From: a virus
DNA length: 63,541 nucleotides
Virus record (IMG/VR): IMGVR_UViG_3300034062_004597
Span: 1 to 63,541 of that record
Direction: 5' to 3' (one strand)
Shown: positions 1 to 60,682 of the stretch, piece after piece
Position numbering within the stretch: the first letter of the stretch is position 1
How the letters are laid out: the number at the start of each line of letters is the position of its first letter
Position numbers and translations under genes: made by a program
The notes under the pieces: model-generated
Told to the model about the DNA's origin: nothing
Databases searched by the model: none
The model's input: the letters and a program-made list of their open reading frames with translations, nothing else

Positions 1-144
1 CTATTGCTCGTACCAATGGTACTCGTAGCAAGCTGAATCATTTTTTGATTTTGCAGTTGATGGTACTTGTACAGCAGGAAATAGGTTAGCGAAAGCACTG
101 CTGCTGTACAAGCCAAAAATCATTTGTGCTAGTTCTCGTGTCAT
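1..144 (-). CDS. Hypothetical protein, 47 aa
   Basis: A short complete leftward reading frame of 47 codons whose TAG stop is formed by the first three bases of the window. The ATG (144-142) is preceded, 7 nt away, by the hexamer CATAAT (157-152), the leaderless arrangement seen at many starts here, which is the main reason to believe it. The product begins MTRELAQMIFGLYSSSAF and has a Tyr/Trp-rich C terminus. I do not recognise a family. It follows the 239-aa gene in the same direction. Confidence 0.5.
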   Translation of the reverse strand: MTRELAQMIFGLYSSSAFANLFPAVQVPSTAKSKNDSACYEYHWYEQ

Positions 145-1130: not shown

Positions 1131-1679
1131 TTAGACTAATTCCAAAATTTCTTGCAATGTGTACTTCTTTTGAAGTGCTTTGATACCTCTTTGGTGTCTG
1201 AAGTAAGCTGTGGGCTTTGGGATTTTTAGCCTTTCAGCTATCTCCTCGAACGTTATGTCTTCCTCGTATCGTAACTTGATAATAGCAGCTTGATCATCTG
1301 GCAGCAGTGCCAGTAGTTCTTCTGACAGCCTTTCATCTTTGGATTGCTGGGCTTCAACTTTGCTTTCCAGAAAGTCATAGTAGCTTTCACCGCTAACCTC
1401 ATCGGTACTGGGAATGAAGTTGCATTCCAAAAGTTCCTTAGTCACTTTGTCCTTGGAGATAGCTCTTAGGTAGTCTTTCCAGATGCTGCTCATAATCTGC
1501 TGCTTGCAGTTGTTGATAGCATGTGGTTGAGCAGCAATTTTGTCCCTGTTTTGCCAGACCTTGATCCTGTAATCCTGCATAAAGTCTTCATATTGCTCAT
1601 ACTTCCCAATCACTTTTGATCTGAAGAACTTAGAGGCTGCTTTCTCACAGTAAATCTTGTCGTTAATAACCTTCAACAT
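1131..1679 (-). CDS. ECF-like RNA polymerase sigma factor
   Basis: 182 aa with the two-domain plan of an ECF-type sigma factor. A region-2-like helix set lies at residues 24-75 (YEDFMQDYRIKVWQN and following). A clear region 4 HTH lies at about 122-170: LLPDDQAAIIKLRYEEDITF, then EEIAERLKIPKPTAYFRHQR. Such proteins bind core RNA polymerase and direct it to -10/-35 elements. The start is ATG 1679 with GGGGG just upstream. With the sigma-like gene at 5099-5893, this gives the phage two candidate specificity factors. Known: region 4 contacts the -35 element. Inferred: it controls phage genes rather than host genes. Confidence 0.8.
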   Translation of the reverse strand: MLKVINDKIYCEKAASKFFRSKVIGKYEQYEDFMQDYRIKVWQNRDKIAAQPHAINNCKQQIMSSIWKDYLRAISKDKVTKELLECNFIPSTDEVSGESYYDFLESKVEAQQSKDERLSEELLALLPDDQAAIIKLRYEEDITFEEIAERLKIPKPTAYFRHQRGIKALQKKYTLQEILELV

Positions 1680-4044: not shown

Positions 4045-5214
4045 ATGTTTAGAAAATCAGTGTCCGAAAAAGATCGCGCTTTAGCCGTTCTGCCAAGAAA
4101 AATACGTAACTTTGTCAAAAGCATTGAAGGCTATGACACCTTGACCGAAATCGTAATCGACCTGGGAAGGCCAGCGGTTGCAAGATACTATCACGACGGT
4201 CAAGCATACACCCCCGAACTCCAACCAGATCACACAGTCACGAAACGTGACATAAACCATGTGATGCGTAGAGTATCGAAGGTCTATGACAACAACAGAG
4301 CAGGTATTTACGGTACACTACACCGAGTTGCGGTTCTGCGTGATAGATCAGGCACTGTAACAGGAATCACCATTCGTATTGCTAGGCACATCGAAGACGT
4401 TTTGGTTACAATCCAAGACATCATTGCCGAAGGCAAAAGCATCCTTCTCGTCGGCCCTCCAGGTACGGGTAAAACCTCTAAGCTGCGAAGCGCATGTAAT
4501 CTTCTAGCAAACACATACGATAAGCGTGTGATGATCGTGGACACCTCTAACGAAATTGCAGGTGACTTGGAATCTCCACACTATTCTGTCGGTATGTCCC
4601 GAAGAATCATGGTGCCTCGCAAAGAGAAGCAAGCTGACGTTATGATCGAAGCTATCGAGAACCACACACCAGAAGTGATTGTCATTGACGAAATCAGCTT
4701 GGAGCAAGAAGCTAGAGCAGCCCTTACGTGCGCTGAGCGAGGCGTACAGCTACTTGCGACTGTCCACGGCAATAATCTTGACTCCCTGCTCTACAACTTC
4801 CCTGTGAACATCCTGCTTGGCGGAATTGACACGGTTACTTTGTCTGACGCAGAATCGAAACGACGAGGCACTTCTAAGACTGTACCTGAACGAAAGGTCA
4901 AGGCTGTGTTCGACGTGCTGGTTGAGTTGCAAGACTTTGACCAGGTTGCGATCTACCACAAGCTCGAAGAATGCGTGGACGCCAAGCTACGAGGTCAGAA
5001 GGTTTTGCCTGAAATTCGCCGTAGCGACAAGAAAGGCGGGTACTTGTCAATCCAAAAATTTGACATAAAAGAAGCGTCTGTGCCTAAAGATACGGAAAAT
5101 GAACGTCATACTTATAACAGACATGACGAAATGTATCAAGAAAAAAACCAGTACGGCAGGCGAACGGACTCAGAGGCTAGCAGAAAGGGCCGTAACAACA
5201 AAAGACGCCGATGA
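4045..5214 (+). CDS. Ycf45/SpoIIIAA-like AAA ATPase
   Basis: 389 aa from ATG 4045. Order: an N-terminal domain (LPRKIRNFVKSIEGYDTLTE with IDLGRPAVAR), then the R-x-G-I-x-x-T-L-H-R segment (NRAGIYGTLHRVAVLRDRSG). Walker A (GPPGTGKTS) follows, then the diagnostic VIVDTSNEIAGDLESPH, Walker B (VIVIDEISLEQEA), the sensor AERGVQLLATVHGNN, and LGGIDTVTLSDAESKRRGTS. This series matches the Ycf45/SpoIIIAA group of secretion-type AAA ATPases, often with an R3H nucleic-acid domain; here the C terminus is instead a basic tail ending RNNKRRR. The DNA or RNA substrate is unknown. An upstream in-frame extension exists but is less likely than the ATG behind the TACAAT box. Confidence 0.85.
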   Translation: MFRKSVSEKDRALAVLPRKIRNFVKSIEGYDTLTEIVIDLGRPAVARYYHDGQAYTPELQPDHTVTKRDINHVMRRVSKVYDNNRAGIYGTLHRVAVLRDRSGTVTGITIRIARHIEDVLVTIQDIIAEGKSILLVGPPGTGKTSKLRSACNLLANTYDKRVMIVDTSNEIAGDLESPHYSVGMSRRIMVPRKEKQADVMIEAIENHTPEVIVIDEISLEQEARAALTCAERGVQLLATVHGNNLDSLLYNFPVNILLGGIDTVTLSDAESKRRGTSKTVPERKVKAVFDVLVELQDFDQVAIYHKLEECVDAKLRGQKVLPEIRRSDKKGGYLSIQKFDIKEASVPKDTENERHTYNRHDEMYQEKNQYGRRTDSEASRKGRNNKRRR

Positions 5215-5893
5215 CATCGAGGCACTAAGACAGTCATTCCTAGGGGTTATCAAAACACATGCGGCAAGGTTTGTCGGTAAATCCGAAATGGACGACATCC
5301 TTGCCGCTGGTAATGAAGGATTTATGGTTGCGTTCAACAAGTATGATAAGAGCCGAAGTAACTTCACGACGATGGCGAATAACTGGATCAAGAAGTACAT
5401 GCGCAACGAAGCGATCAATCGTTCTTACTTGATCAAACACCCAGTCGGTATTCTTGATAGAAAATCGAGAGTCATCAGAGCAATCGCAGAATCTAAGCAG
5501 AAGTTTGGTCATGTGGATCAAGCATTTGTGATGGAGACATCTGATGTTCGTGTATGGGAAACCTGTATGGAGCTTGTTGACTTTCAATTCATGGATGTAA
5601 TCTCATTACAATACGGAATGAAAGCAATCCCAGAGAAAGCAGCTACTAACTCTGTACTTGAAAAATCACCACACATGCAACAGAGTGTGGTTATCGACGA
5701 AATTAACAAATACGCTCAGTATACGGTACAATTAACTATGTTGGACGATAGTTTACCTGAAGAATATGTGTCTGTTTTACAAGACATCGAGAATGGCATG
5801 TCCATTAAGGGAATTGCTCGTAAGTATAGTCTTACCGAAAACAAGGCCGCTGAACTTGTAGAAGGAGTTAAAGAAATTGAAGACAATCGCTAA
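5099..5893 (+). CDS. Sigma-70 family-like factor
   Basis: 264 aa. Residues about 40-115 form sigma region 2: LRQSFLGVIKTHAARFVG, then DDILAAGNEGFMVAFNKYD, F-T-T-M-A-N-N-W-I-K-K and MRNEAINRSYLIKHP (core binding and -10 recognition). A middle region of about 90 residues is not recognised. The C terminus (YVSVLQDIENGMSIKGIARK plus YSLTENKAAELVEGV) looks like a region 4 HTH. The start (ATG 5099 or 5123) overlaps the ATPase gene by about 100 nt. Inferred role: redirecting RNA polymerase to phage promoters. Confidence 0.75.
   Translation: MNVILITDMTKCIKKKTSTAGERTQRLAERAVTTKDADDIEALRQSFLGVIKTHAARFVGKSEMDDILAAGNEGFMVAFNKYDKSRSNFTTMANNWIKKYMRNEAINRSYLIKHPVGILDRKSRVIRAIAESKQKFGHVDQAFVMETSDVRVWETCMELVDFQFMDVISLQYGMKAIPEKAATNSVLEKSPHMQQSVVIDEINKYAQYTVQLTMLDDSLPEEYVSVLQDIENGMSIKGIARKYSLTENKAAELVEGVKEIEDNR
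5722..5737 (+). promoter_or_regulatory. Intragenic copy of TACGGTACAATTAACT
   Basis: Exact repeat of the motif at 4012-4027. TACAAT (5727-5732) lies 5 nt before an in-frame ATG at 5738 within the sigma-like gene, so a leaderless mRNA could encode only its last 51 residues (the HTH). Confidence 0.35.
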
Positions 5894-11476: not shown

Positions 11477-11872
11477 ATGTCTCAAGAATACAGGCTAATC
11501 GAACACATCCATAAGCTCAGGAATAGTATTCCTTTGCAGACAGCGATCTACAAACCTGGAGAGGTTGTGGGTAACCCAGACTTCGAGATTAGGTTAGAGC
11601 AAGCACTACGAACGCTGAATGTCAAACTCGTACAAGTCGAGAAGCCGTTGTACTATTCCTTCGACTTCGAGGAAAGAATTCTCATGGGCCTGTATCCGCA
11701 CAATCCAGAATCGCTTTGGTGGATGTTGATTAACCTCGCACACCTGGTAGCTATGCCAACGACAACTCAGTACGGGTTTGAATTTGCCCGTTATGCAGGT
11801 GCGGAAATCTTGTATTTCAGCCAATTTGAGGGCGAGTGGTATAATACCTACACGGGCATGGAAAAGCTCTAA
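11477..11872 (+). CDS. Hypothetical protein, 131 aa
   Basis: Second gene of a two-gene unit, starting ATG 11477 right after the upstream stop. It begins MSQEYRLIEHIHKLRNSIPL and contains a Trp-rich helix (ESLWWMLINLAHLVAM). No family recognised. It ends 23 nt from the convergent tnpB stop; a TGGTATAAT sequence near 11838 inside its 3' end could be a fortuitous or real -10 box. Confidence 0.65.
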   Translation: MSQEYRLIEHIHKLRNSIPLQTAIYKPGEVVGNPDFEIRLEQALRTLNVKLVQVEKPLYYSFDFEERILMGLYPHNPESLWWMLINLAHLVAMPTTTQYGFEFARYAGAEILYFSQFEGEWYNTYTGMEKL

Positions 11873-11990
11873 AATACTTATCAACTACCTAACCACTAAT
11901 TGGTCAGACTTGTTACAAGCTCAGCCGAAGGCTGAGCGAACAATAGGACGGTTGATTGCACCCCTAAATTGGCTATATTCTTACTTGCGT
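11873..11990 (-). ncRNA. Candidate omegaRNA (reRNA) at the tnpB 3' end
   Basis: In known TnpB systems the guide scaffold overlaps the 3' end of tnpB. Here the last 25 codons contain a perfect 8-bp stem with a 3-nt loop (GCTCAGCC-TTC-GGCTGAGC, 11937-11919 on the minus strand), 21 nt before the stop. Position and structure fit; the ends of the RNA are not defined by the sequence. Confidence 0.35.
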
Positions 11991-13005
11991 TAAAGTCAGC
12001 ATTCTCTGTGTGTCCGCAGGACATGCAGAGAAACAGTTCTTGACTCTTTCGGTTTTTCTTTTCGCAATGTCCACATGCTGAACACGTCTGCGACGTGTAT
12101 GCTGGTTTGACAATCACCAAAGGAACTCCATAAAGTTCTGACTTGTAAGTAATGTAGCTTCTAAGCTGGAAGAAACTCCAACTCATACGTTCACTTCTAT
12201 TAACCCGCCTGACCGTTACTTGTTTGTTGATACCAGTTAGCTCTTCCAGAGCCAATGAGTATCCAAGTGCCTTCGCTTTTGTTACTAGAAGTTTTGAAAT
12301 AACATGGTTAGTGTCTTTTCTAAATCTTGATTCTTTTTTACCAATTGTTTTAATTCGTTTTCTTGCAGAGCGTGTTCCACGCTTTTGAAGTCGTTGCCTA
12401 TGGGCATGTAGTTGTTTTCGTTTCTTCTCGATGTGTTCACCAGAAAATACATCACCTTCAGAACTCACAGCAATTTTCTTGACTCCAAGATCAACACCCA
12501 TGACGCCTTTGGCGTCATATTTCTCTGGCGTAGGCACAACTAGATTACAGATCAAGTAGAAGTTACCATCCTGCAGCACTAAGTCTACCTGACCTTTTCT
12601 AAAATTAAATTTGTCTTTGTCGTAAACTTGGATAGGAATATCCATTCTACCATCGTTTGTCCAGATGTTTACGACATCTTCACCTTTGAATTTTATGATT
12701 CTATCATCGTAGACTACAGCAGAATTTTTCTTGAAGTAATTTTGGTGATGTCGAGTTCTCTTAATTTTGTACGAGTCAGACACAACACCTATGGCTCTGA
12801 TAACAAGTTGTGATCCGCATAGTGGAAACGTTTCACGTTGACTTCTGTAAACAAGATGATGGAGTTGAATTTTTTGATATTCTTTCGCCTCGAATGCTTG
12901 ACGAGAAATATCGTTGCAGACATCGTTGAAGGTATTCATAGTGCGCATAAGCGCACGATGTTGAATCTCATTAGTTTTGAGTTTCACCTTCAAAGTGATG
13001 TGCAT
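11896..13005 (-). CDS. tnpB: TnpB RNA-guided endonuclease
   Basis: 369 aa from ATG 13005, chosen because GCGGTATAAC sits 6 nt upstream. The N-terminal WED/REC-like part is followed by the RuvC motifs GVMGVDLGVKK (first Asp), YSLALEELTGI (Glu) and NADFNASKNIA (last Asp). Before the last motif lies a zinc ribbon with CSACG and CMSCG. All catalytic residues look intact. Length is near the 370-400 aa typical of TnpB. Known: TnpB cuts DNA next to a TAM using an omegaRNA and supports element retention. Its role in a phage is open: homing, competitor exclusion or passenger. Confidence 0.93.
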   Translation of the reverse strand: MHITLKVKLKTNEIQHRALMRTMNTFNDVCNDISRQAFEAKEYQKIQLHHLVYRSQRETFPLCGSQLVIRAIGVVSDSYKIKRTRHHQNYFKKNSAVVYDDRIIKFKGEDVVNIWTNDGRMDIPIQVYDKDKFNFRKGQVDLVLQDGNFYLICNLVVPTPEKYDAKGVMGVDLGVKKIAVSSEGDVFSGEHIEKKRKQLHAHRQRLQKRGTRSARKRIKTIGKKESRFRKDTNHVISKLLVTKAKALGYSLALEELTGINKQVTVRRVNRSERMSWSFFQLRSYITYKSELYGVPLVIVKPAYTSQTCSACGHCEKKNRKSQELFLCMSCGHTENADFNASKNIANLGVQSTVLLFAQPSAELVTSLTN

Positions 13006-13011
13006 AATAAT

Positions 13012-13017
13012 GTTATA
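13012..13017 (-). promoter_or_regulatory. -10 element of leaderless tnpB promoter
   Basis: GCGGTATAAC with exactly 6 nt to the tnpB ATG at 13005. Confidence 0.5.
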
Positions 13018-13030
13018 CCGCGTTTTAGGG

Positions 13031-13036
13031 TATAAT
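13031..13036 (+). promoter_or_regulatory. Extended -10 before the metallophosphoesterase gene
   Basis: AGGGTATAAT, giving a predicted leader of about 18 nt before ATG 13061. Back-to-back with the tnpB promoter. Confidence 0.55.
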
Positions 13037-13060
13037 ATCCACAAGGGCTACTGTAAGTAT

Positions 13061-14353
13061 ATGATTTGGCAAAAAGAAGAAGTTGAGTGGTTGCAAGCCA
13101 ACCAAGAGTTAGATTTGTCCGCTAAGGCCAGTTACTTGAAAAGATCGTACGATTCCGTGCGTAAGAAGGTCAAGAGTCTTGAGAACGAAGGCAAGGTAAC
13201 CAACCTAAAAGATTTTGCGAGTGTAGAAGGTCACATCCGCGTTAACGAAGCAGGAACAATCCTTGAAGGCGTACTTGAACGTAGACACATCACGGTTGAC
13301 TACATCCACGAAGCCTACAACATTGATCCAGAAGAATACAAGATCGTCAAGATCATCTTCGGCAATCACGAAGGCTTAACGAAAGACAACGACGGTGATG
13401 CTCACATTCACCAGATGGTAAACTTCAAAGTTATCATCGAACCAAACAAGGACAGCAAGTTCTACAAGGCCGTTCTTGATCAGATCATCAGCCGTGTACC
13501 GAAAGCTGCTCCACGAGTTATCAAGCCTACCTTTACAGGTGAAAATGTTCTCGAAATAGCTATCGTGGATCACCACTTAGGAAAGAAAATTGCTAAGGGA
13601 AATACTGGCTACCACGACTACGACATGGAAGAGGCACTGTCTCAGCACATGATAGCTCTCAGGACACTTGTGGGTAAAGCACAAGTACACGACGTAGGCA
13701 AGGCAATTTATGTACTCGGTAACGACTTGCTACACATTGACACTCCTGCACGTACAACAACCCGTGGGACGCAGCAGCACACCACAGGCAATCTGCAAGA
13801 AATCTTTATGAGTGCTGCCGAACTTACGATTCAATCTGTTGACTTCCTACGCAACAATTTCAAAGAGGTTTTGATTGTATGTACTCCTGGCAACCACGAC
13901 ACTATTTCCACATGGATGCTAAGTAAGCTAATCGAAGCGCACTACAAGGACAACGAAGAAGTAAAGCACCTTAACAAGCCTTTACCGAGGCAGTACGTGA
14001 CCATCGGTAACACGATCATCATGTTTACCCACGGACACCAGATGAAGGCTAAGAAACTTGCTGCCAAGATGCCAGGTGAGATTGAATGGATTGAAGGTAA
14101 GTTCCCGTTCAAGGAAATTCACGTAGGACACTTCCACCACGAAAAGGTAGAAGACATCGACGGTAAGATGTACCGTATCTTGCCTTCTCTCACACCAGTA
14201 GACGAATGGCACAATGACAATGGATGGATCGGTGCTAACATGCGATCAAAAGCCTTCGTATGGAATCCGTTGACCGGATGCGAAGCTGAAATCTATTTCA
14301 CACCGTTTTACGAAGCACCTGAAATACCACATTTCTCTTTAAGCAGGCTGTAA
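13061..14353 (+). CDS. HTH-metallophosphoesterase fusion
   Basis: 430 aa from ATG 13061 (MIWQKEEVEWLQANQELDLS); the frame opens earlier, across the promoter. The first 50 residues form an HTH (ASYLKRSYDSVRKKVKSLEN). The C-terminal two thirds hold calcineurin-like phosphoesterase motifs: AIVDHHLGK, YVLGNDLLHID, CTPGNHDT, MFTHGHQMK and VGHFHHEK. Such proteins occur close to packaging and head genes in large phages, where they may act on DNA ends or on host nucleic acid. The gene directly precedes the portal gene. Substrate unknown. Confidence 0.8.
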   Translation: MIWQKEEVEWLQANQELDLSAKASYLKRSYDSVRKKVKSLENEGKVTNLKDFASVEGHIRVNEAGTILEGVLERRHITVDYIHEAYNIDPEEYKIVKIIFGNHEGLTKDNDGDAHIHQMVNFKVIIEPNKDSKFYKAVLDQIISRVPKAAPRVIKPTFTGENVLEIAIVDHHLGKKIAKGNTGYHDYDMEEALSQHMIALRTLVGKAQVHDVGKAIYVLGNDLLHIDTPARTTTRGTQQHTTGNLQEIFMSAAELTIQSVDFLRNNFKEVLIVCTPGNHDTISTWMLSKLIEAHYKDNEEVKHLNKPLPRQYVTIGNTIIMFTHGHQMKAKKLAAKMPGEIEWIEGKFPFKEIHVGHFHHEKVEDIDGKMYRILPSLTPVDEWHNDNGWIGANMRSKAFVWNPLTGCEAEIYFTPFYEAPEIPHFSLSRL

Positions 14354-14384
14354 TACGGTAAATAACCATTAGAGGAAAATTTAT

Positions 14385-15839
14385 TTGATACACGCTCTGG
14401 CATTCAAACAAAACAAGACAAAGGGGTTCGTAGACACACTTCACGCAAACGAAGTTGGCGGTAAACTCACACGTCAATCCGGGTTTGGTGTCGGTGGCCC
14501 GACTCAAGATGGTAAATACTCCCACGACCAAGCTGCTCGTTTGTTTAGGGAAAACCCTATCATTCGACGAGCAATTTTGTTTGGATCAAACCAGATCAAG
14601 GTACTCAACTGGGACATCTTTGCTGAAGACAGTAAGAACCGCACCACAAAAGTTCGTAAAGGTTATCCATACAAAATTCTTGAGTTCTGTAATCCCCAAC
14701 AATCGTTTAGAGACCTTGTAGCCCAGCACTACGCTGACGCAGAACTCTACGGAAACGCCTTTATCGTAATCGAGAAGACTGCTCCAGAGTATGCAAACAT
14801 TAGCCCTTTGTCTCTTTACCCGCTCAACCCTAAGTATGTTCAGATCGTTCCAGACGAGGAAACGAAGGTTCGCTGGTATGTCTACAAGAACGGCACGGAT
14901 GAATTCGCCTATCCCGAGAATATGGTTATCCATACGTACGAGTACGCTTCTTCAAATTACTATCTCGGTGATAAAGCAGTTGATGCTGCTGACTTTGATA
15001 TTCAAATTGAAAAGCTGACAAAACGTGCTTCTCGCAATATACAACAACAAGCAGCGGTTATCTCTGGTGTGCTTACTTGTAAGAACACAATTGGTGCTGA
15101 CGAATTAGCAAGGCTTAAAAAGGAATTTAACGAACAATACGCTGGAAGCAAGAATTCTTACAGAGTCCTCGTGCTTGAAAAAGACATGGAGTACAAGTCT
15201 CTGAATCAGTCCTCAGCACATGAAGGTGTTATGGAGCTTATCACACAGGCGCAGAAGAACCAAGCAATCGCTTTCGGTGTGCCGTTTGCTTTACTTGACG
15301 CTGAATCAAAGGATATTGATAAGTTAGAAAGTTTCTTCTGGAGAACAAAACTTGTACCTTGGGCATTGACATTCCAAGAGACTGTCACAAAGAAGTTATG
15401 CGCTCCTGTGGTCAGTGGGCTGTCTGCTAATACTCGAATTGGTAAGTTGTACTTCGCATTTAGATTTAAGGAAGTTCAAGCCCTACGCCGAGAAATGCTT
15501 GATGATATGCGTGTGATCACTGCTGCCCTTAACACAGGTAAGATGACTCCTAACGAGGCTCGTGAATTCACTGGTGATGATCCGTATGACGGTGAAGCAG
15601 AAGAGTTTGGAAATCTTCCAAGACCAGTGTATGACAACAAGATGGGTACGAAAGCGCAGGAAGCGGCAGACGCAGCTTCACCATCACTAACTTTACCAGG
15701 TTCAATGGGCGGTAGAGACCAATCAGACGGCGGGGAAGCACAGCTTGTTGATGAGACAGGAACGAGGTCTGTGCCACTTACTGAGAACGAAAAGTTACTA
15801 GCAATGTGGAATAAACTTGATAGTAAGGGCAAACAATGA
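14385..15839 (+). CDS. Portal protein
   Basis: 484 aa, TTG start at 14385 with AGAGG 9-10 nt upstream. HK97-type portal features: a segment RLFRENPIIRRAILFGSNQI, the wing/stem region AELYGNAFIVIEKTAP with LYPLNPKYVQI, and a helical crown (IQIEKLTKRASRNIQQQAAV). FGVPFALLDAESKDIDKLES and a C-terminal MTPNEAREFTGDDP follow. The dodecameric portal forms the DNA entry channel and docks terminase. It precedes the protease and capsid genes, the usual HK97 order; the terminase gene is far away at 60.7 kb. Confidence 0.88.
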   Translation: MIHALAFKQNKTKGFVDTLHANEVGGKLTRQSGFGVGGPTQDGKYSHDQAARLFRENPIIRRAILFGSNQIKVLNWDIFAEDSKNRTTKVRKGYPYKILEFCNPQQSFRDLVAQHYADAELYGNAFIVIEKTAPEYANISPLSLYPLNPKYVQIVPDEETKVRWYVYKNGTDEFAYPENMVIHTYEYASSNYYLGDKAVDAADFDIQIEKLTKRASRNIQQQAAVISGVLTCKNTIGADELARLKKEFNEQYAGSKNSYRVLVLEKDMEYKSLNQSSAHEGVMELITQAQKNQAIAFGVPFALLDAESKDIDKLESFFWRTKLVPWALTFQETVTKKLCAPVVSGLSANTRIGKLYFAFRFKEVQALRREMLDDMRVITAALNTGKMTPNEAREFTGDDPYDGEAEEFGNLPRPVYDNKMGTKAQEAADAASPSLTLPGSMGGRDQSDGGEAQLVDETGTRSVPLTENEKLLAMWNKLDSKGKQ

Positions 15840-17260
15840 CAAACGTTTTCAAGCCAGGTGTACCAGTTGATCCAGAAACCAAGATTCTAAGACTTGGTGA
15901 CATTAAGAGTACCCTAGGTGACTTTGAGGATAGTACATCAACCAAACAAATGTCTGGATACGTTAGCGTGTCTACCCCAGACTTGGTTAATGACATTATC
16001 GAGCCTGCAGCATGGAATAAGCACCTTTGGAGATACCTTAACAATCCAGTGTATTGCTTCATGCACGATCACTTGCAACCAATTGGCCACGTAAAGAACT
16101 CATACACTGATGCAAACGGTTTGTATTTGGAAGGAATTACTCTTTCAGATATTCCGTTAGTCAGAGATATGCTATGGCCTATGATCAAAGACGGCAGCCT
16201 TAAACAGCAGTCAGTCGGATTTAGGTCACTGGCTGGTGAGTACGTTAGCAATGCTAAGTTCTACAAGCACACCGAATGCTATCTACTTGAGAGTTCGCTC
16301 GTAACGGTAGCTTGTAACCCGGATGCAATGCTGGATCAAATCAAGAAGATTTCAAAGTTCATACCGGACTACGAAAATATTTATGGCAATAATGTCAACA
16401 AGTTTATGGCAGATTACTCTGCTGGTAAACTCCCGTCCCTTTCTGAAGTAAGAAAAGAGTTTTATATGAGCATACCAAACGAATCGTCAACAGTCGAAGA
16501 GACTAAATCCCAAGTCGCAAGTCCTCTGTACGAAGCGTGTGAGCCTTCTACAGTCCTTGACGGTGATAATGTTAGCAATGATGACACCCACCTTATCAAG
16601 CGTGTCAACGGCAAGCGTTTAGACTATGCCCTTCGAGTTGGTACTCAGCACAAGTCTGGTGTGGACATTACGTTTGAAGACCTGGCTATCTCCACGTACA
16701 AGTTGCTTGGAGCTAGAACAGATTTTGTATTTGCTCCTGGTGAGCGCGAGAAGGCTATTAAGCGAGTAGCTGGTCTTTACCGACAGCTTGAAAAGTCTGT
16801 ACCAACACACAACGGTGTTGATATTGATAAGCTAGAAGATGTTGCTCTTTACGAAACTGTGAAGTACGACACTGTTACTTTCGCAGAGAACGAGCCTTTC
16901 ATTTACGAGCAGAAAACGTTCGAGAATCAAATGAATTCGGCTATCAACATTCTAAGTAGTTGGAATAAGTCTGGGGCTGTCACTAAGGATACAATCGACA
17001 TGCTTCTCAAGTACGTGTACGCTGTGTTTGAAGTTTACGTATCAATTGGTGACAGGGAAGATGCTGACATGGTTAATGCAATCATTGATGCCATGATGAG
17101 TGCTGCTGAAGCTGCTAAGGAAGATGAGCCACCTAGTATCTACGAAATGAATACAGATAGCGAAGTAGAGAAGTCTGAAGAAGCTGCTGAAACGCCTGAA
17201 GAGTCAAAGATTGACAAAGAATTCGCAGAACTTATGAAGAAATTCGCAAAAAAGCAGTAA
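15836..17260 (+). CDS. Prohead protease with long C-terminal extension
   Basis: 474 aa, overlapping the portal stop by 4 nt. The first 170 residues match the HK97 prohead protease fold: GYVSVSTPDLVNDIIEPAAW, then NNPVYCFMHDHLQPIGHV (catalytic His region), SLKQQSVGFR (catalytic Ser) and ESSLVTVACNPDA. The remaining 300 residues are unusual: a helical domain (LDYALRVGTQHKSGVDITFE and beyond) and a strongly acidic, Lys-ending tail. The extension may act as a built-in scaffold or serve capsid assembly. It lies 102 nt upstream of the capsid gene. Confidence 0.85.
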   Translation: MTNVFKPGVPVDPETKILRLGDIKSTLGDFEDSTSTKQMSGYVSVSTPDLVNDIIEPAAWNKHLWRYLNNPVYCFMHDHLQPIGHVKNSYTDANGLYLEGITLSDIPLVRDMLWPMIKDGSLKQQSVGFRSLAGEYVSNAKFYKHTECYLLESSLVTVACNPDAMLDQIKKISKFIPDYENIYGNNVNKFMADYSAGKLPSLSEVRKEFYMSIPNESSTVEETKSQVASPLYEACEPSTVLDGDNVSNDDTHLIKRVNGKRLDYALRVGTQHKSGVDITFEDLAISTYKLLGARTDFVFAPGEREKAIKRVAGLYRQLEKSVPTHNGVDIDKLEDVALYETVKYDTVTFAENEPFIYEQKTFENQMNSAINILSSWNKSGAVTKDTIDMLLKYVYAVFEVYVSIGDREDADMVNAIIDAMMSAAEAAKEDEPPSIYEMNTDSEVEKSEEAAETPEESKIDKEFAELMKKFAKKQ

Positions 17261-17281
17261 AAAATTATCCATAAAGCATTT

Positions 17282-17320
17282 AATCGCTACTGATATGTGG
17301 AATACATATTAGTAGCGATT
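17282..17320 (+). promoter_or_regulatory. Long hairpin upstream of the capsid gene
   Basis: AATCGCTACT and AGTAGCGATT form a perfect 10-bp stem that continues inward through ATATGT/ACATAT around a GGAAT loop. No T-tract follows, so it is not a classic terminator. It lies 43 nt before the capsid start and may stabilise or process the capsid mRNA, or attenuate readthrough. Confidence 0.65.
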
Positions 17321-17362
17321 CTCATGGAGACCTATCCGCGTTAGAATCTGAAGGAAAATACA

Positions 17363-19003
17363 ATGATTGATCCTAATACACAACCTAACGAACCCGTACT
17401 AACACGGAAGGACTTAAATGACCTTGGTATCGAAGGCGTAGCAGAAGCGAAGGCTTTGCTCTCCCGAGCTATCGAAAAAGGCTCTGACATCGAAAAGCTG
17501 GTTCAGCTTCAAGAAGCTCAAATCGAAGCTACAAAGGCTTTGACGGAAAACTCCAAGCTCTTGCTCGAACAACGCAAAGAAGAAATCGAATCCAACAAGT
17601 TTGACGAACTCAATTCCTCGAACATTGTAAAGCTGTTTGAAGGCGCATCGGAAGATGACCAACGAAAGATTTACGAAGATGCAAGTGCTAAGTTTGGTGC
17701 GCACAACGCTCAATTGGTTCTTACAGGAACTGAAATCGAGAAGGCTGTTAGCCGACAAATTCACCGCGACCACAAGGACTACGAAAAGATCACTGCCATT
17801 CAAAAGGCTAATGACCAAATCTTCCTTGCAGTTGCTGCTCTCGGTGGCTCCAAGGCTACTATGGCTGAAGGTGGAATCCGAATTGACCGAGATGTTCTTG
17901 CACAAGTTAAGGACATGTTCAAGAATGCTGGTGAGAACACCAAGGCTATCAACGATGCCCTTGACTCCATCACTGCTACGGACGGTTTGGAATGGGTTCC
18001 AACGATGTATTCCAGTAACCTTTTGCGAGACGTTTATCTTTCGCTCCAAGTTGCAAGTACATTCCGCCGAATCAACATGCCAAGTGCTACGTACAAGTTG
18101 CCTTACCTCACTAAGCGAACTCGTGCGTACAAGATGGGTCAAGCTACTTCAGCTTCCCCGTTCACTAACCTTGCGAAAGTCCACGGTCTTGACACCGCTG
18201 ACCTGACAATGACTGCTGTTAAGCTCGGCTTTGCACAGTTCGTGTCTGGTGAACTACGAGAAGATTCCATCATTGACGTTGTTTCAGAAATGTACGACGA
18301 AACAGTTTGGGGTCTTGCTAGCGCAATTGACGATGCTTGTCTCAACGGTAGCTTGCTGCTTACCGACCTTGATAACGCTGGTGCTGACGGTGGTGGTACT
18401 CCTGCCAACAACGCTCGTCTCTGGTCTAACACCAACGACTCTGGTGACGACATCCGCTTGAACACAGGTGCTGATGACGCTCGTAACGCATGGAATGGTA
18501 TCCGTAAGTTGACCAACGCTGGTGCGCGACTTGACGGTGGTGGTGTGGCTCCAAACCTCGCTAACTTCCGTGCAATTCGTAAGCTGATGGGCAAGTATGG
18601 CGCGACTGCAAGCAACTTGATTGCTTTCATCAACCCAGCTTCGCAAATCGACTTCTTGAACCTTCCTGAAGTTCTTACCCTTGAAAAGTACGGCCCTAAT
18701 GCTACGGTTCTCGTTGGTGAAATTGGACGACTTGACAGCATTCCTTTGGTTCAATCTGAGTACCAACGAAATGACTACAACGCAAGTGGCGTGTTTGACA
18801 ACGCTACCAAGACTCGAACGATCATCTCCCTTGTTCACAAGGACGGATTCTTGTTCGGTGACCGAAGAATGCCAACCGTTCAATCGGGTGACAACGTTCT
18901 CGCTGACCAATCCTACATCGTGACAACTAACCGTGTTGCGTTTATGAAGCGATTCCAGTCTGCTGACAACATTGCTGCTGAACTCTACAACGTTGCTAAG
19001 TAA
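17363..19003 (+). CDS. Major capsid protein, HK97 fold
   Basis: 546 aa, ATG with AAGGA upstream. The first 130 residues are charged helix (delta domain: VQLQEAQIEATKALTENSKL), which in this family assists assembly and is usually removed by the prohead protease. The shell domain starts near residue 205 (DGLEWVPTMYSSNLLRDVYL) and continues with the N-arm/E-loop region and the P-domain helix (DVVSEMYDETVWGLASAIDD). An A-domain region is seen at ANFRAIRKLMGKYG. Arg codons are often CGA. A strong terminator follows. Confidence 0.92.
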   Translation: MIDPNTQPNEPVLTRKDLNDLGIEGVAEAKALLSRAIEKGSDIEKLVQLQEAQIEATKALTENSKLLLEQRKEEIESNKFDELNSSNIVKLFEGASEDDQRKIYEDASAKFGAHNAQLVLTGTEIEKAVSRQIHRDHKDYEKITAIQKANDQIFLAVAALGGSKATMAEGGIRIDRDVLAQVKDMFKNAGENTKAINDALDSITATDGLEWVPTMYSSNLLRDVYLSLQVASTFRRINMPSATYKLPYLTKRTRAYKMGQATSASPFTNLAKVHGLDTADLTMTAVKLGFAQFVSGELREDSIIDVVSEMYDETVWGLASAIDDACLNGSLLLTDLDNAGADGGGTPANNARLWSNTNDSGDDIRLNTGADDARNAWNGIRKLTNAGARLDGGGVAPNLANFRAIRKLMGKYGATASNLIAFINPASQIDFLNLPEVLTLEKYGPNATVLVGEIGRLDSIPLVQSEYQRNDYNASGVFDNATKTRTIISLVHKDGFLFGDRRMPTVQSGDNVLADQSYIVTTNRVAFMKRFQSADNIAAELYNVAK

Positions 19004-19022
19004 GATTAGCAATTGAGTTAAA

Positions 19023-19054
19023 GAGGCTCCTAGATTTAGGTCTAGGAGCCTTTT
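19023..19054 (+). terminator. Rho-independent terminator after the capsid gene
   Basis: GGCTCCTAGA (19025-19034) and TCTAGGAGCC (19041-19050) form a perfect 10-bp stem with a 6-nt loop, followed by TTTTGTT. The -10 box of the next gene starts 5 nt later. Confidence 0.9.
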
Positions 19055-19058
19055 GTTG

Positions 19059-19064
19059 TATAAT
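19059..19064 (+). promoter_or_regulatory. -10 element of leaderless promoter
   Basis: TATAAT, then 6 nt (ATAAGT), then ATG 19071, directly after the capsid terminator. A clear new transcription unit. Confidence 0.6.
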
Positions 19065-19070
19065 ATAAGT

Positions 19071-19619
19071 ATGCCATTCAAGAATGTCACAAGATCGGGT
19101 GAAATCATGGATTACCGATTCGAGTTAGAACCGGGTAGCCTGTCTTTAATAGAAGACGTGCTTATTCAAATATCCCATGAGCGACGGTACTCCAATAACC
19201 TATCATGGACTGTGTTACAGCACTCGTGTGCTATTTACAGTTGTGCAAAGGCTATGGGCTATGGATATGACTTCTGTAGGTATGCTTTAACGCATGACTT
19301 CCATGAGGCGATTGTACGCGATGTACCAACTCCGATCAAAGAAGCTATTGGAGAGGCATGGTATCGTGTAGAGGATACAGTAGCAAAAAGACTAGCAAAC
19401 TACTTTGAATATCCTATATTGACAGATTTGACAATTGAGGAGCAGGAAGAATTCAAGAAGCTAGATAAGGATTTTGCCAAATACGAATGGATGATGTTCA
19501 TTGAAAATCAAATAGACAGTGTTCCAGAGGTAATTCGTTCCTCGATAGTTTCGGTTCTTGGTATCGAGCGTAAAGACTTGATAATCCGTGTTGCAGAAAC
19601 CTTTTTGAACTTACCATAA
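19071..19619 (+). CDS. HD-domain phosphohydrolase
   Basis: 182 aa from ATG 19071, fixed by the promoter. HD-superfamily motifs: first His in LSWTVLQHSCAIYSC, then the doublet in YALTHDFHEAIVRDVPTPIK, and a distant Asp in the LDKDFAKYEW helix. The P-T-P-I-K turn after the HD motif resembles YfbR-type 5'-deoxynucleotidases. It probably dephosphorylates (d)NMPs or a related nucleotide. Its place between capsid and connector genes, with its own promoter, marks it as an inserted accessory gene. Confidence 0.8.
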   Translation: MPFKNVTRSGEIMDYRFELEPGSLSLIEDVLIQISHERRYSNNLSWTVLQHSCAIYSCAKAMGYGYDFCRYALTHDFHEAIVRDVPTPIKEAIGEAWYRVEDTVAKRLANYFEYPILTDLTIEEQEEFKKLDKDFAKYEWMMFIENQIDSVPEVIRSSIVSVLGIERKDLIIRVAETFLNLP

Positions 19620-25669: not shown

Positions 25670-28600
25670 ATGGCAAGAAACAAAACCTTAAAAGCAACTT
25701 TAGTAATCGACGCAGATGTTAGCAAAGCTAGCAAAGCGGTTGCGGATATTAAAAATGCAGCCGCTAAAGGTATTAACACACCTCAAGATAGACGTTCTTA
25801 CGAAAAGAAAGTTGATACAGCCATTAAGGACACATCAGCTAGTGCCGCAAAGACTACTGCTCTCGGGCAGGCTGAATCAAAAAGAGCCGCTGCTATTCAA
25901 GCCGAATTGCTTAACTTACTAAAGGGTCAATTAAAAGCTATAGGTGGTCGAGACCCTAAAACTGGTAGATTTGTTGGTATGGTGGATGCCACAGCCAAGG
26001 ACAAAGCCCTGGTTTCTGCTGTCGTTGCTGCTATTAAAGCTGCCAACCTTGGCCCCCAGTTTGACGCTAAAGCAGGTATTACGGGTAGGATGACTGCTGC
26101 TGCTCGTGCGCGAAAAAGTTTGGAGTTTGCTTACGCTCCGCCATCAAATGATCCATCAGAGCGAAGATTTCAAGAACAGGCTAGAGAAGCATTAGGACTA
26201 CTAAAGACACAAGAAGAATTAAAAGATTCTGTTAAAAAAACAATCACGTCTTTAGAAGATATGGCTGGAGATTATCGTGATGCTGCCGATAGTGCGCAAG
26301 CGTTAAACATCGGCGCAACAAAGCTAAATACCATTCTCGCCAATCTTACAAAAGAGCAAAAAGCCTTTAACGAGGCTATGGAAAGAGGTGTCGCACTCTC
26401 CAAAGAATTCTTTAATGGTGTTGAAGGTGAAGCAAAGAAGGTTGCTAAGTCTGCCTCGCAAATTGCTAAGTCTCTGGAAAAGCTGGACGCTAGCCAACTA
26501 ACTTCTGAGCTAAAGAAGATTGATACCGCTTTTGACAAGGTAAATCTTAAAGCACAGAATCTCGAAAGAAAGCTGGCTAATGCAAAGAACAGTCCTCAAG
26601 AAGCTGCAAAAGCTGCTGAAAGGGTTAAAGAACTTAATGCGCTGGAAGCACAAAGAACCGCCCTGCTCAATTCGCGTAATGCAATTCTTGCAAGACAAGC
26701 AAAGATACAAGGTGAGCGAAGCGGTGTTGAATCTCTTTTAAGACCATACCAACCAAATCCTAACCAAAGCCAGACTATGGCTGATAGCCGTATGGTTCGG
26801 TCAGGTTACGAAGACAAAATGCACAAGCTACATCGTAGAATTACCAAGACTGGTGATATTGACGATGCTATCTACAACCAAAGCCGTGCAGAATTGGAGA
26901 GTAGTTACCGGGCAGTTCGAGGTGTAAAAAACCAATTAGGCCAAGAACTCGATGCAGGTGTGTACACAGGTTCAGACTTAGCAGAAGCTAAGAAAGCCTA
27001 TGAGCGCATGGAAGCACTTACCAAAGCTCACTTTGAAAAGTTGGAAGACTTGGAAAGAGCCTACGAGAAGCAAAAGACTCATGGTTCATTGCTCAATAAG
27101 AACTTAGATCAAGATAGAGCAAAAAATGCTGATCAAGAGGCACGAAACAGAGCGTACATCAAGATGATTAAAAAGCTAGCTGCTGCTCGTGCTGAGGCTG
27201 AAAGTTTTGCGGAAAATGACAATTCGTTTAAGGCTCGTAGAGCTAAGAAAAGATACCTTCGTCTACAAGAAAGTAGCCTTAACCCGTTAGCAGATTTGCT
27301 GCAGGGCAAAGCTGGTACCAATCCAATCAAGGCGCAGGCTTTGGGTATCTATGGTCTTGATGCTAACTTAACTGCTCCAGAATTTCGAGAAGCGTACAAC
27401 GAACGAACTCAAGCTGCTCGTGACGCTTACCAGCTTTCAAAGCGAAAGAACTTCTATGAAATTGCTGGTGCTAAGCTAAAGGGTGGATTCAAGTCGCAAG
27501 GATTCAGAGACTTCCAAGGTAGATTTGGATACGGTCTTGGTATGCTCGGTGTTGGTCTGGGAGCAGGTGGATTTGGCTACGCCGCCACAAATCTAATCAG
27601 AGGTACTGCAGGAGCATACATTGATAGAACGTCTACTGAAGCAGGACTCGCTGGTTTAACCAACACCTATACTCGGTTCCTAGATAGCAATGGTAGGAAT
27701 GTGTCTCCTGCTGGTAATTTTACGGCTTCTGTATTCTCCGCTAAAGCACTGTACACGCGTCTTAGAGAGGCTTCAAAGGAGACCCTAGTTACACCACAGG
27801 AACTAGCTGAATCATTCATGTCCGGTGCGCCTGCGCTCCGTAATAAGGGTTTTAGCGAAGATCAAGCATTGAAACTCACTTCGCGCATTGTCGCTATGGG
27901 TAGGGCCATGAACCTTCCTTCGGCAGCTATCCAATCAGACATCCGTGACTTTGCTCGTGGATCGGTTACTCGTAACTCTCAGGTGCTACAAGCTCTGGGC
28001 CTATCTACGACAGGATTAAAGGAAGCAACAGCTAAAGGCCCAGAGGCAGCTATGGCTTACTTTAATGAAAGGGTTGCAGGCTTTGAGCCAGCGTTTAAGA
28101 AACTACGAGAAGAACTTCCGGGCCAAATCAATGAAATGCGAATCGAGCTTGAAAAAGCTGCACAAGACATTGGTATGTATGCTACTCCAAATATTATCAA
28201 GGGTATCCAAACAATTCGTAAAGAATTGGTTAGCTTCGGAGAAAGTGGTGGTTTTGAGAAAATAGGTACACAGCTAGGCGACATGATTTATGGCCTTAGC
28301 AACATGCTAAATGGCATAATGCCCATTATTACGACCCTAACCGCTTCCCCACTAAATGCAAGTTTGGGTGTGCTGAGCGGAACGCTTGGTTTGGTTAGTG
28401 TGCAGGCATTTGCCGCATCAAAGCCTTGGGCAGCTTTAGGGGCGGCTGTTGTTTTGACTACGGGTATTATTATAGACCAAACTAAGAAGTTGCAAGATAG
28501 TGCGGTATTGGCACAGTCTGACAACGCTGTTGACTTATTAAGGTATAAACCTGATGAATCTGCAAAATACGATGCAAAATTTGATTATCAAGAGCAGTAC

Positions 28601-31600
28601 GCAAAGTACGTCGCTAAAACTGGAAAAACAGATGGCTTTGTGTACGAACCTCTTACTGAGTACAATAAAATTATAGGTAAGAAAAATGCTCTACTTCTGG
28701 CAAAAGATTTAGGGCCAGCGGTAACTAACGACCCAGGCAGAGACCCGTTTGGTATGTTATCTAGTAATTTGGCTCCTTTCATGGGAGTAGGCGCACCAAC
28801 GGTTGCTGATACGGGTAGAAACTACGATACAGCAATGGACTTCTTGGCGCAAGCCGATCAAACTGTACAAGAAATGCTTAGCTCTGGTGAATTAACCAAA
28901 GAAAAGTACGATGAGGCTGTGGAAATTTTATCCGCTGTCAATGTTGGTGATCTAGCATACCTTATTCAAGATATTTATAAGGCACTTCAGCCTAATACTC
29001 CCTACGTTACGTCTGAAGCTACAAATAACATAGTTGGCAATATAACTGGTAGAAAAGGAGCATTTAGGGGTGCAATTAACAATGTTGGCGAGAGAAGTTT
29101 GTTAATCAAAGCTATAGATGAGGTTAACAAAAAGAAAGGTTACGGATTTGAAGAATTAACTTCTGTGGCTGGAGCATTGTCGAACTCAGTGGATAAAAAG
29201 AAGTACGAATCAGGTGCGGCCTACACATCCGATTTGTTTGAAAACCAGGCCAGAGCAGCTAAGCAGCAAACTGCGGCGGATAGCGCGTATAAAGCTGCAA
29301 AAAAAGCGGGTAAGACAGATTCTGAAGCTGCGCAGATGGCTGCTGATGCAGTGCGAAATTGGGGTAGGAAAGATTTACCGGGTGCAAGTTCAGAAGATGC
29401 TGGCAAGGCTAAGAAGCAAACCAGTGCGTTAGAAGCTAAGATTGCTCAACTACAATACGCTGCCAATCAAGCCGATAGATATGTTCAAAGAACTAGCGAC
29501 TTCGCTATCTCTGGTGGTGGATACTTAAAGTTAAATGCCCTTGGTAGATCAATGGATGCAGGTATCGCTCTTGCTCGTGCTGAGTACGAACTCGGTATGG
29601 CTAACGCTAAGGAAAATGAGTTAGGGCCGTACGAAGATCAAAGACTTCAAACCCAGTTGCAACAAGCTATTACGAATGTTACCAATGCCTATGAAGATCA
29701 AAGACGGCAGATGGAGCTTAACATCGAACAGCAAAAGATGCAAAACAAGTTGCTTAGCGAATCCAATGAAATTAAGCGAAAGGAGTTGCAATACGCTGAG
29801 AAAGAATTCCAAGTCTCTAAAATAGACAAGGACGACATTCAAGGTGGATACGCTGCCCGTATGGGATTGTTGCAAGACAAGTACGGTCTTACCAGAATGC
29901 GCTATGCTTCTAGCCTTACGCAAATCAGCGAGTCCGATAGAATCCGAAGGTTGGAATATGCAGAGGCTTCCAAGTCTACTATGGATGCTGTAAGTAATGC
30001 TGCTTTGGATGATGGTATGAGCAGTACAGGGTTGTCGAACTCGACTCCTGGCGGTGCCTTTACACTAGGTAATCAATTTGGTAACACTCAGACTAGCGGA
30101 TTTGGCCCGAGACGAAGACCTTCTACATTCGGCGGAAAGCAAGGTAGCGCGAATCACGGTGGTATTGACTACGGTGTACCAACTGGTACTAAGATCAGAG
30201 CGCAAGCCGATGGTAAAGTAATCTTTGCTGGAAGCAAGGGTGGATATGGATTCTATCTTCAGATTGACCACGGCCCAGTAGTAACTGCTTACGGACACCT
30301 TTCAAAGATTTTTGTTAGGGTAGGAGACATCGTAACCAAGGGTCAAGTGGTAGCTTTGTCTGGTGGTGGAAAGAATGATCCAGGTAGAGGAAACTCTTCA
30401 GGCGCACACGTTCACTTTGAGACTCGTGTAAATGGTAAGACTGTTAACCCAGCTAATATTTACGGAAAACAATTCACAAATAGTGGTTTCAAATCAAGCG
30501 GAAGCACATTCACAAAACCTTTGTCAATGGCAGCATCTGGTGTTAGCTATGGTCTGTGGGATGAAGACCTAGGACTGCAATATGATCAAGCTATGCTAGA
30601 TGGCCCAAGAACTGACATGCAAACTTTGCGACAAAGTGCATTCAGCGAGGGTTATAAAATGGCGGGTGAAACCGCAGCTAAAAGCACACTTGAGATGGGC
30701 AAGCGTGGCGCAAGATACGATGTCCTTAATGGTGAGTATGAATCAAACGCACAACGACAAAGAGCAATCCAACTCTTTAATGCACAGCAACGCTTTGATT
30801 TGCTTAAAGAAAGCACAGACAGAAGAATGAGAGATTATTCTACAGTTGTTGGTGAAAGAGCTTCAAGAATTTTTGATCTGAGAGCAAATCTTGGTTCTGG
30901 CGGTACGTACGAAACTATGCTTGACATAGCAGAGATTGCTAAGCTCGAAAAACTTAACGCTACGGAACCACAAAAGGCTTTCGATGCTTTGTTCAACACA
31001 TTGAATAATGCAAACAATGCTTTGAAGGATTTCAACAAGGAAATTATTAGGGCTAATGAGCTTGAGAAGGCACGTAATGATCGAGATGCACTAGGAATCG
31101 AACAGTCCATAGCTGCAGGTACCAGAGGTTATGATAAATCAATGTCGCGTTTGGGTGGTTCAGGACGTATTGACGCTGGATTCTTCTCTACTGATTCTAT
31201 CAGGGGTACGTATACGGAAGCAGGGGCAGCAGCGCAAGAATCCGCACAATCGCAACTTGATATGCAGATTGCTAATGACAAAGCTACCGAGGTTATCAAG
31301 TATGAAAGAGTTGGTATGTATGGCATTAAGCCTAGGAAATTAACGCGATACCAGCTAAATCTGGAAAAAGACCCACAATACTACAACAAGATTAGGCAAG
31401 CCAACATCAGCAGAATTCAAGGAAACACTTTGTCTGCTGCAGGCAAGGACAGACTGCTTGGCAATCCTAGGCTCTCAGGGCTTATTTCAGGGGGTATTGG
31501 ATCGTTAGGGTCTTTAGATGCCTACGGACTTCTAAGCAACCCAGAAGGCCGTCTGGACGCCATTAAAGGGCTAGTCTCACCGCTCACCGCGATGGGTGCA

Positions 31601-60044: not shown

Positions 60045-60682
60045 TGGATTTACAAGGAAGAACAAAAGACCAAAGAATACAGTTAGCAAAGGATCACTTC
60101 ATTAAGCAAAACTTGGAGTTGAATTACTCCGACGCATACAACTTAACTGAAATCGTAACTGTACTTGCTAACACCTACGATTTGACTGAATCTACAATCA
60201 TGCAGAACATAAACCTGCAAGACTGGATAGGTTTACGTGCAAGCTATAAGGCCAACAGAGATAAAGAGTTTAGAGAACAAGTAGCAAGAGCAGAGCGTTC
60301 ACGAGAGGTTGAGATGTCTGCGCTTAGGGCTAAGCTACTTAATGCACTTGACAGAGGATTTGATGCAGTGATGGATCGAATTGTGGATGACATTCCTATC
60401 ATGGAAACTCAACACGTTCTAAAAGCTGCTGACACTCTCCTGAAAATGGCTACCATGTACAACGAACTTAGCAAGGAAACTGTTAAGACCGATGACAATG
60501 AAAATGCTACTGCAACACTCGAAACCACATTGCAACGTGTGGAGAAGCTGGCAGGAGAACCATCAAAGGTTATTGACCTAGCGGAGAGAGCTTTAGATAA
60601 AGGTACAGAGAAAGCATTAGCAGAACATAATTCGCAGGCAGCGGAGAAAGAGCAATTGTTTAATAGGCTCAGTGAGATATGA
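60044..60682 (+). CDS. Putative terminase small subunit
   Basis: 212 aa. An N-terminal HTH-like region (LNYSDAYNLTEIVTVLANTY, then DLTESTIMQNINLQDW) and a charged helical oligomerisation region (AERSREVEMSALRAKLLNAL, then VLKAADTLLKMATMYNELS) follow the small terminase plan. It overlaps the large terminase gene by 4 nt. It would recognise the packaging site. No sequence-level family match is certain. Confidence 0.68.
   Translation: MDLQGRTKDQRIQLAKDHFIKQNLELNYSDAYNLTEIVTVLANTYDLTESTIMQNINLQDWIGLRASYKANRDKEFREQVARAERSREVEMSALRAKLLNALDRGFDAVMDRIVDDIPIMETQHVLKAADTLLKMATMYNELSKETVKTDDNENATATLETTLQRVEKLAGEPSKVIDLAERALDKGTEKALAEHNSQAAEKEQLFNRLSEI

What the first reader, a model, noticed from the sequence alone, without database searches (positions are those of the whole stretch)
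11873..13020. Phage tnpB with intact nuclease motifs and an omegaRNA-like 3' hairpin, no tnpA
Seen: complete RuvC motifs and zinc ribbon, own leaderless promoter, and a perfect 8-bp hairpin in the last codons; the neighbouring genes look intact. Known: TnpB uses an omegaRNA from the element 3' end to cut DNA beside a TAM. If the sequence past the stop (TAGTGGTTAGGTAGTTGAT on the minus strand) supplies the guide, the target might be an empty phage locus (homing) or a rival phage.
Basis: partly seen in the sequence, partly recalled or inferred. Interest (0 to 1): 0.6.

Follow-up and report, generated by a model that had tools for sequence, protein, structure and literature searches.

The report
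Phage TnpB nuclease with covarying guide RNA

Summary
The finding is real. Window 13005-11896(-) encodes a 369-aa TnpB with the RuvC D172/E254/D337 and zinc-ribbon residues intact, and no tnpA. Its 3' end overlaps an omegaRNA. A covariance model built from eight relatives without the window finds it at 11971-11880(-) (68 bits, E=6e-19). A terminal pseudoknot (ATCAAC/GTTGAT) matches the one solved in ISDra2. In the last 29 codons selection shifts from protein to RNA.

Near-identical relatives at different sites diverge exactly after GTTGAC, so the guide starts at 11879 (AAGTATTTTAGAGCTT). Relatives' left ends and empty plasmid sites give a TTCAY-like TAM.

New here: the IS605 left-end hairpin present in most relatives is missing, so the element should not transpose by TnpA. 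A second omegaRNA of the same family is cut by the contig's left edge (1-61). Best explanation: a TnpA-immobile TnpB-omegaRNA cassette kept as a homing (gene-drive-like) nuclease against phage genomes lacking it. No empty allele of this phage was found, so homing is inferred, not shown.

The parts
11896..13005 (-). tnpB, 369 aa, RuvC D172/E254/D337, zinc ribbon C308 C311 C327 C330
   Evidence: 74% identical to L002 and L003
11880..11971 (-). omegaRNA 3' scaffold (covariance-model match, overlaps the end of tnpB and its stop codon)
   Evidence: 68.4 bits, E=5.8e-19 with a model built without the window
11946..11963 (-). stem A (GGGTG/CGTCC), whose loop carries the 5' pseudoknot strand ATCAAC (11956-11951)
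   Evidence: helix 1, 97% of cells paired
11888..11908 (-). hairpin 2 (CTGACCA-ATTAG-TGGTTAG), GC-rich in relatives, AT-richer here but still paired; the tnpB stop codon lies in its loop
11880..11885 (-). 3' pseudoknot strand GTTGAT, last bases of the element's right end
   Evidence: 89 of 96 Watson-Crick pairs in own loci against 77 shuffled, P=4e-5; ISDra2 pseudoknot in PMC10097598
11864..11879 (-). predicted guide AAGTATTTTAGAGCTT, antisense to the 3' end of the neighbouring gene 11477-11872
   Evidence: element boundary mapped in relatives; inferred for the window
1..61 (+). 3' end of a second tnpB (frame 1, TGA 34-36) and its omegaRNA, cut by the contig's left edge; guide would start at 62 (GGTACTTGTACAGCAG)
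   Evidence: 26.8 bits, E=2.8e-6, truncated match; sequence
13006..13060 (-). 55 bp between tnpB and the divergent exonuclease gene: all that is left for a left end; TATAAC 12 nt before ATG; no left-end hairpin

Best explanation
It is an IS200/IS605-derived TnpB-omegaRNA cassette in a phage. Shown by sequence: an intact nuclease, an omegaRNA under selection for its fold, an element right end at 11880, no recognisable left end and no tnpA. Inferred: TnpB is translated, trims its own mRNA to the omegaRNA, and loads a ~16-nt guide copied from the DNA after 11880. It cuts phage genomes that carry TTCA(C/T)-AAGTATTTTAGAGCTT (the site without the element) beside the 3' end of gene 11477-11872. Repair from the tnpB-bearing genome copies the cassette in, as a homing endonuclease or gene drive does. 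Its own copy is spared because the bases before the guide are GTTGAT, not the TAM. Without a left end it should no longer move by TnpA, so its upkeep would rest on cutting.
For: Intact catalytic and zinc residues and a TnpB/Cas12f-like predicted fold. omegaRNA model match, covariation, and a shift of constraint from protein to RNA in the last 29 codons: dN/dS 0.09-0.13 in the body against 0.77-0.96, with synonymous differences falling from 0.65-0.69 to 0.24-0.35. Right border: two 98% identical copies on unrelated plasmid sites diverge right after GTTGAC. TAM: TTCAY near -18 in 8 of 13 left ends, 0.9 expected. Empty sites TTCAC|flank-like and CTCAC|guide in plasmids. Left-end hairpin found in relatives not used to build its model, but not in the window. 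TnpB acting as a gene drive is reported for plasmids (PMC11870625).
Against: No allele of this phage without the element was found, so homing at this site is not shown. The TAM of this very protein is inferred from relatives. Hairpin 2 of the window is AT-richer than in relatives, and the folding energy of the region is only mildly better than shuffles (z -1.7). Purifying selection was measured against diverged relatives and may date from before the left end was lost. No expression data.
Confidence: 0.5

Rival explanations
1. A stranded remnant: an IS605/IS1341-type element jumped into the phage, lost its left end, and the intact tnpB-omegaRNA is a passenger with no present use that has not yet decayed.
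For: Left end missing, no tnpA. The terminal hairpin has changed from GC-rich to AT-rich. Close relative L003 also lacks the left-end hairpin.
Against: The frame, all catalytic residues and the pairing of every helix are kept although the hairpin sequences changed. Phage genomes usually lose unused DNA quickly (general knowledge).
Confidence: 0.3
2. A non-autonomous but still mobile IS element: a TnpA supplied in trans by host or co-infecting phage moves it using a diverged left end not recognised here, and TnpB only secures the donor site.
For: Two different members sit in this one contig. Relatives in phages have intact left ends but no tnpA in their records either. One relative (L017) has a diverged left end that the model missed.
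Against: Only 55 bp lie between tnpB and a conserved coding region, while left-end hairpins in relatives lie about 80-130 bp upstream of the start.
Confidence: 0.12
3. A weapon or regulator exapted by the phage: the guide region is used against a rival phage or a host gene rather than the empty site.
For: TnpB-derived factors exapted by prophages exist (TldR; PMC13418256).
Against: The guide is the phage's own flank, as in ordinary elements. No target was found in IMG/VR (exact 20-mer) or in the 373 kb of held loci. The nuclease is not dead as in TldR.
Confidence: 0.08

Closest known systems
ISDra2 TnpB-omegaRNA (IS200/IS605, Deinococcus radiodurans; PDB 8h1j, 8exa)
   Same: RuvC nuclease with zinc ribbon; omegaRNA overlapping the 3' end of tnpB; pseudoknot between the last bases before the guide and an upstream loop (PMC10097598); predicted model aligns at Z 17-19
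   Different: 369 aa; TAM inferred as TTCAY-like instead of TTGAT; no tnpA and no left end
Compact TnpB of Parageobacillus/Geobacillus plasmids (L025, L027) and huge-phage relatives L002, L003, L009
   Same: 42-74% identical protein, same omegaRNA layout and same right border GTTGAC
   Different: Most relatives (not L003) keep the left end TTCAC...GGAAGCC-hairpin-GGAGGAA, which is missing in the window
TnpB gene drive of IS200/605 elements in plasmids (PMC11870625)
   Same: Guide taken from the flank cuts replicons without the insertion
   Different: There the IS is mobile and on plasmids; here it is in a phage, apparently not mobile by TnpA, and the drive is inferred
Prophage TldR (PMC13418256)
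   Same: TnpB-derived, phage-encoded
   Different: TldR has an inactivated RuvC site; here the site is intact

Membership tests
TnpB RNA-guided nuclease (OMEGA) | RuvC catalytic triad and zinc ribbon | tested here: met
   D172, E254, D337; C308, C311, C327, C330 conserved
TnpB RNA-guided nuclease (OMEGA) | omegaRNA overlapping the 3' end of tnpB with a pseudoknot before the guide | tested here: met
   comparison with PMC10097598
TnpB RNA-guided nuclease (OMEGA) | RNA-guided cleavage beside a TAM | not testable with these tools
   TAM TTCAY inferred from relatives only
IS200/IS605 transposon (complete element) | tnpA (Y1 HUH transposase) | tested here: not met
   no PF01797 match in the contig; tnpA-less elements of this family are common
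IS200/IS605 transposon (complete element) | left-end subterminal hairpin | tested here: not met
   model R2 finds it in relatives, not in the window; L017 shows that a diverged end can be missed
IS200/IS605 transposon (complete element) | right-end hairpin and border | tested here: met
   hairpin 2 and border at 11880
TldR (nuclease-dead TnpB repressor) | inactivated RuvC active site | tested here: not met
   active-site residues intact
Type V CRISPR-Cas (Cas12f) | CRISPR array beside the effector | tested here: not met
   no direct-repeat family of 25 nt or more in the window
Homing nuclease | related genomes with and without the element at one site, carrying the target | tested here: inconclusive
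   no related locus found

The most novel reading that the evidence does not exclude
Phages keep left-end-less, TnpA-independent TnpB-omegaRNA cassettes (window, L003) that spread only by RNA-guided homing between co-infecting phage genomes, doing in RNA-guided form what LAGLIDADG and HNH homing endonucleases do.
Probability: 0.3. Interest if true: 0.6.

Novelty: new member of a known kind. Interest (0 to 1): 0.38.

Why it matters
Phages often carry tnpB without tnpA, and why they keep it is not settled. Here the guide, scaffold, probable TAM and expected target can all be named, so the homing idea becomes directly testable. It also corrects where the guide begins in this compact TnpB group.

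Tried and rejected
No Rfam family matched. Exact guide searched in IMG/VR: none. TAM plus guide seed in 373 kb of held loci: none. Neighbouring genes and the leftmost gene searched in IMG/VR for empty or filled sites: none. The portal gene found two near-identical short contigs, L050 and L051, that do not reach tnpB. A conserved leaderless promoter was not above chance. The idea that the contig's right end carries the start of the second tnpB was rejected. A 6-bp palindrome in the exonuclease gene at the place expected for the left end was judged chance, since that stretch is coding sequence covered by the phrog_704 match. The model-to-PDB rmsd values (about 18 A over the whole chain) mean that domain arrangement is not reliable; only the family-level match is used.

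Full report
What was checked. The window is a 63,541-base virus record from IMG/VR, a tailed phage with portal, protease, family A DNA polymerase and terminase-like genes. The ORF named in the finding starts at ATG 13005 and ends at TAG 11898-11896 on the minus strand, 369 aa. Pfam scores it as TnpB over both curated cut-offs. The RuvC residues D172, E254 and D337 and the four zinc-ribbon cysteines are kept and conserved in relatives. An AlphaFold2 model (mean pLDDT 82) aligns best with Cas12f and TnpB structures (Z 17-23). No tnpA is present in the contig.

Relatives. Two huge-phage contigs carry proteins 74% identical (L002, L003). A bacterial MAG contig (L006, 68%), more phage contigs (L009-L017) and plasmid copies (L024-L029) follow at roughly 38-66%. 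DNA similarity to L002 and L003 begins near the start codon and ends sharply after GGTAGTTGA(C/T).

The RNA. A covariance model built from eight relatives without the window matches window 11971-11880(-) at 68.4 bits, E=5.8e-19. On 22 aligned matches 85% of cells are paired against 59% in shuffles and at most 51% in slid controls, with 94 double changes against 34; that alignment is fitted to the model, so it leans towards it. The loop hexamer and the terminal hexamer pair better with their own partner than with those of other loci (89 of 96 Watson-Crick, shuffled mean 77, P=4e-5). The covariation comes mainly from pairs 5 and 6 (L009, L024, L026, L028, L029). At pair 1 the window has A-U where most have G-C, but that pair is not kept in all loci. 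This corresponds to the pseudoknot solved in ISDra2, where -6 to -2 pair with -102 to -106 (PMC10097598). In the last 29 codons synonymous divergence from L002/L003 drops from 0.65-0.69 to 0.24-0.35 and dN/dS rises from about 0.1 to 0.8-1.0, as expected where the RNA rather than the protein is under constraint.

The border and the guide. Two copies 98% identical on unrelated plasmid sites (L025, L027) stop matching exactly after GTTGAC; two phage copies 90% identical (L014, L016) stop after GTTGA. The same column in the window is base 11880. The predicted guide is AAGTATTTTAGAGCTT from 11879 down (one base of uncertainty), antisense to the last codons of gene 11477-11872.

The left end and the TAM. 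In relatives a hairpin GGAAGCC...GGAGGAA lies roughly 80-130 bp before tnpB, with TTCAY mostly 18 bases further out (8 of 13 loci, 0.9 expected). An Anoxybacillus plasmid shows a diverged but continuous empty version of the L025 site, with the junction inside the alignment. Nine Geobacillus and Parageobacillus plasmids, one of them read base by base (L067), carry CTCAC directly followed by the sequence that serves as L027's guide, without the element; the left flank of L027 itself does not match them. So the family probably uses a TTCAY-like TAM. In the window only 55 bp separate tnpB from a divergent exonuclease gene, and the left-end model finds nothing. The model does find left ends in relatives not used to build it (L024, L029, L012, L010), so the test works, although it misses a diverged one in L017. 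L003 lacks the hairpin too.

A second copy. The same covariance model finds a truncated match at window 1-61(+) (26.8 bits, E=2.8e-6). Read in frame it gives LLLVPMVLVAS-stop, like the usual C-terminal tail, followed by a right end closing with GTTGAT at 61. The contig is cut inside a second tnpB of this family. It is not a recent duplicate of the first: its hairpins differ.

How it most likely works. Shown: intact nuclease sequence, folded and selected omegaRNA, border, missing left end, no tnpA. Inferred from TnpB biochemistry: self-processing of the RNA, loading of a guide copied from the flank, and cutting of TTCAY-AAGTATTTTAGAGCTT. The own locus is spared because GTTGAT, not the TAM, precedes the guide. 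In a phage this would act on co-infecting genomes without the insertion and copy the cassette in, comparable to what is reported for TnpB on plasmids (PMC11870625). The stranded-remnant reading remains open, because no empty allele of this phage was found.

Verdict. A well-supported new member of a known kind, with two points of interest: loss of the transposition end with the nuclease and omegaRNA kept, and two members in one phage contig that also carries probable inteins.

Noticed in passing
window 1-61 (+): Truncated right end and omegaRNA of a second tnpB of the same family, cut by the contig edge; predicted guide GGTACTTGTACAGCAG.
   Followed up: partly
window 48514-52800 (+): Family A DNA polymerase with probably two inteins (Hint match at aa 661-790; LAGLIDADG and intein-bearing-family matches at about aa 860-1220).
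   Followed up: partly
window 60679-63426 (+): Probable terminase large subunit interrupted by a LAGLIDADG intein (LAGLIDADG match aa 303-465).
   Followed up: partly
window 1131-1679 (-) and 5099-5893 (+): Two sigma-factor-like genes, matching different parts of sigma factor families.
   Followed up: no
window 62-112 (+): Perfect 12-bp inverted repeat CTTGTACAGCAG/CTGCTGTACAAG directly after the second tnpB right end, overlapping its predicted guide.
   Followed up: no
window 25670-32230 (+): 2186-aa tape-measure-like protein with an embedded metallo-endopeptidase/endolysin domain.
   Followed up: no
L050, L051: Contigs from two other samples are 99.98% identical to window 14335-19276, so the same phage recurs.
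   Followed up: partly
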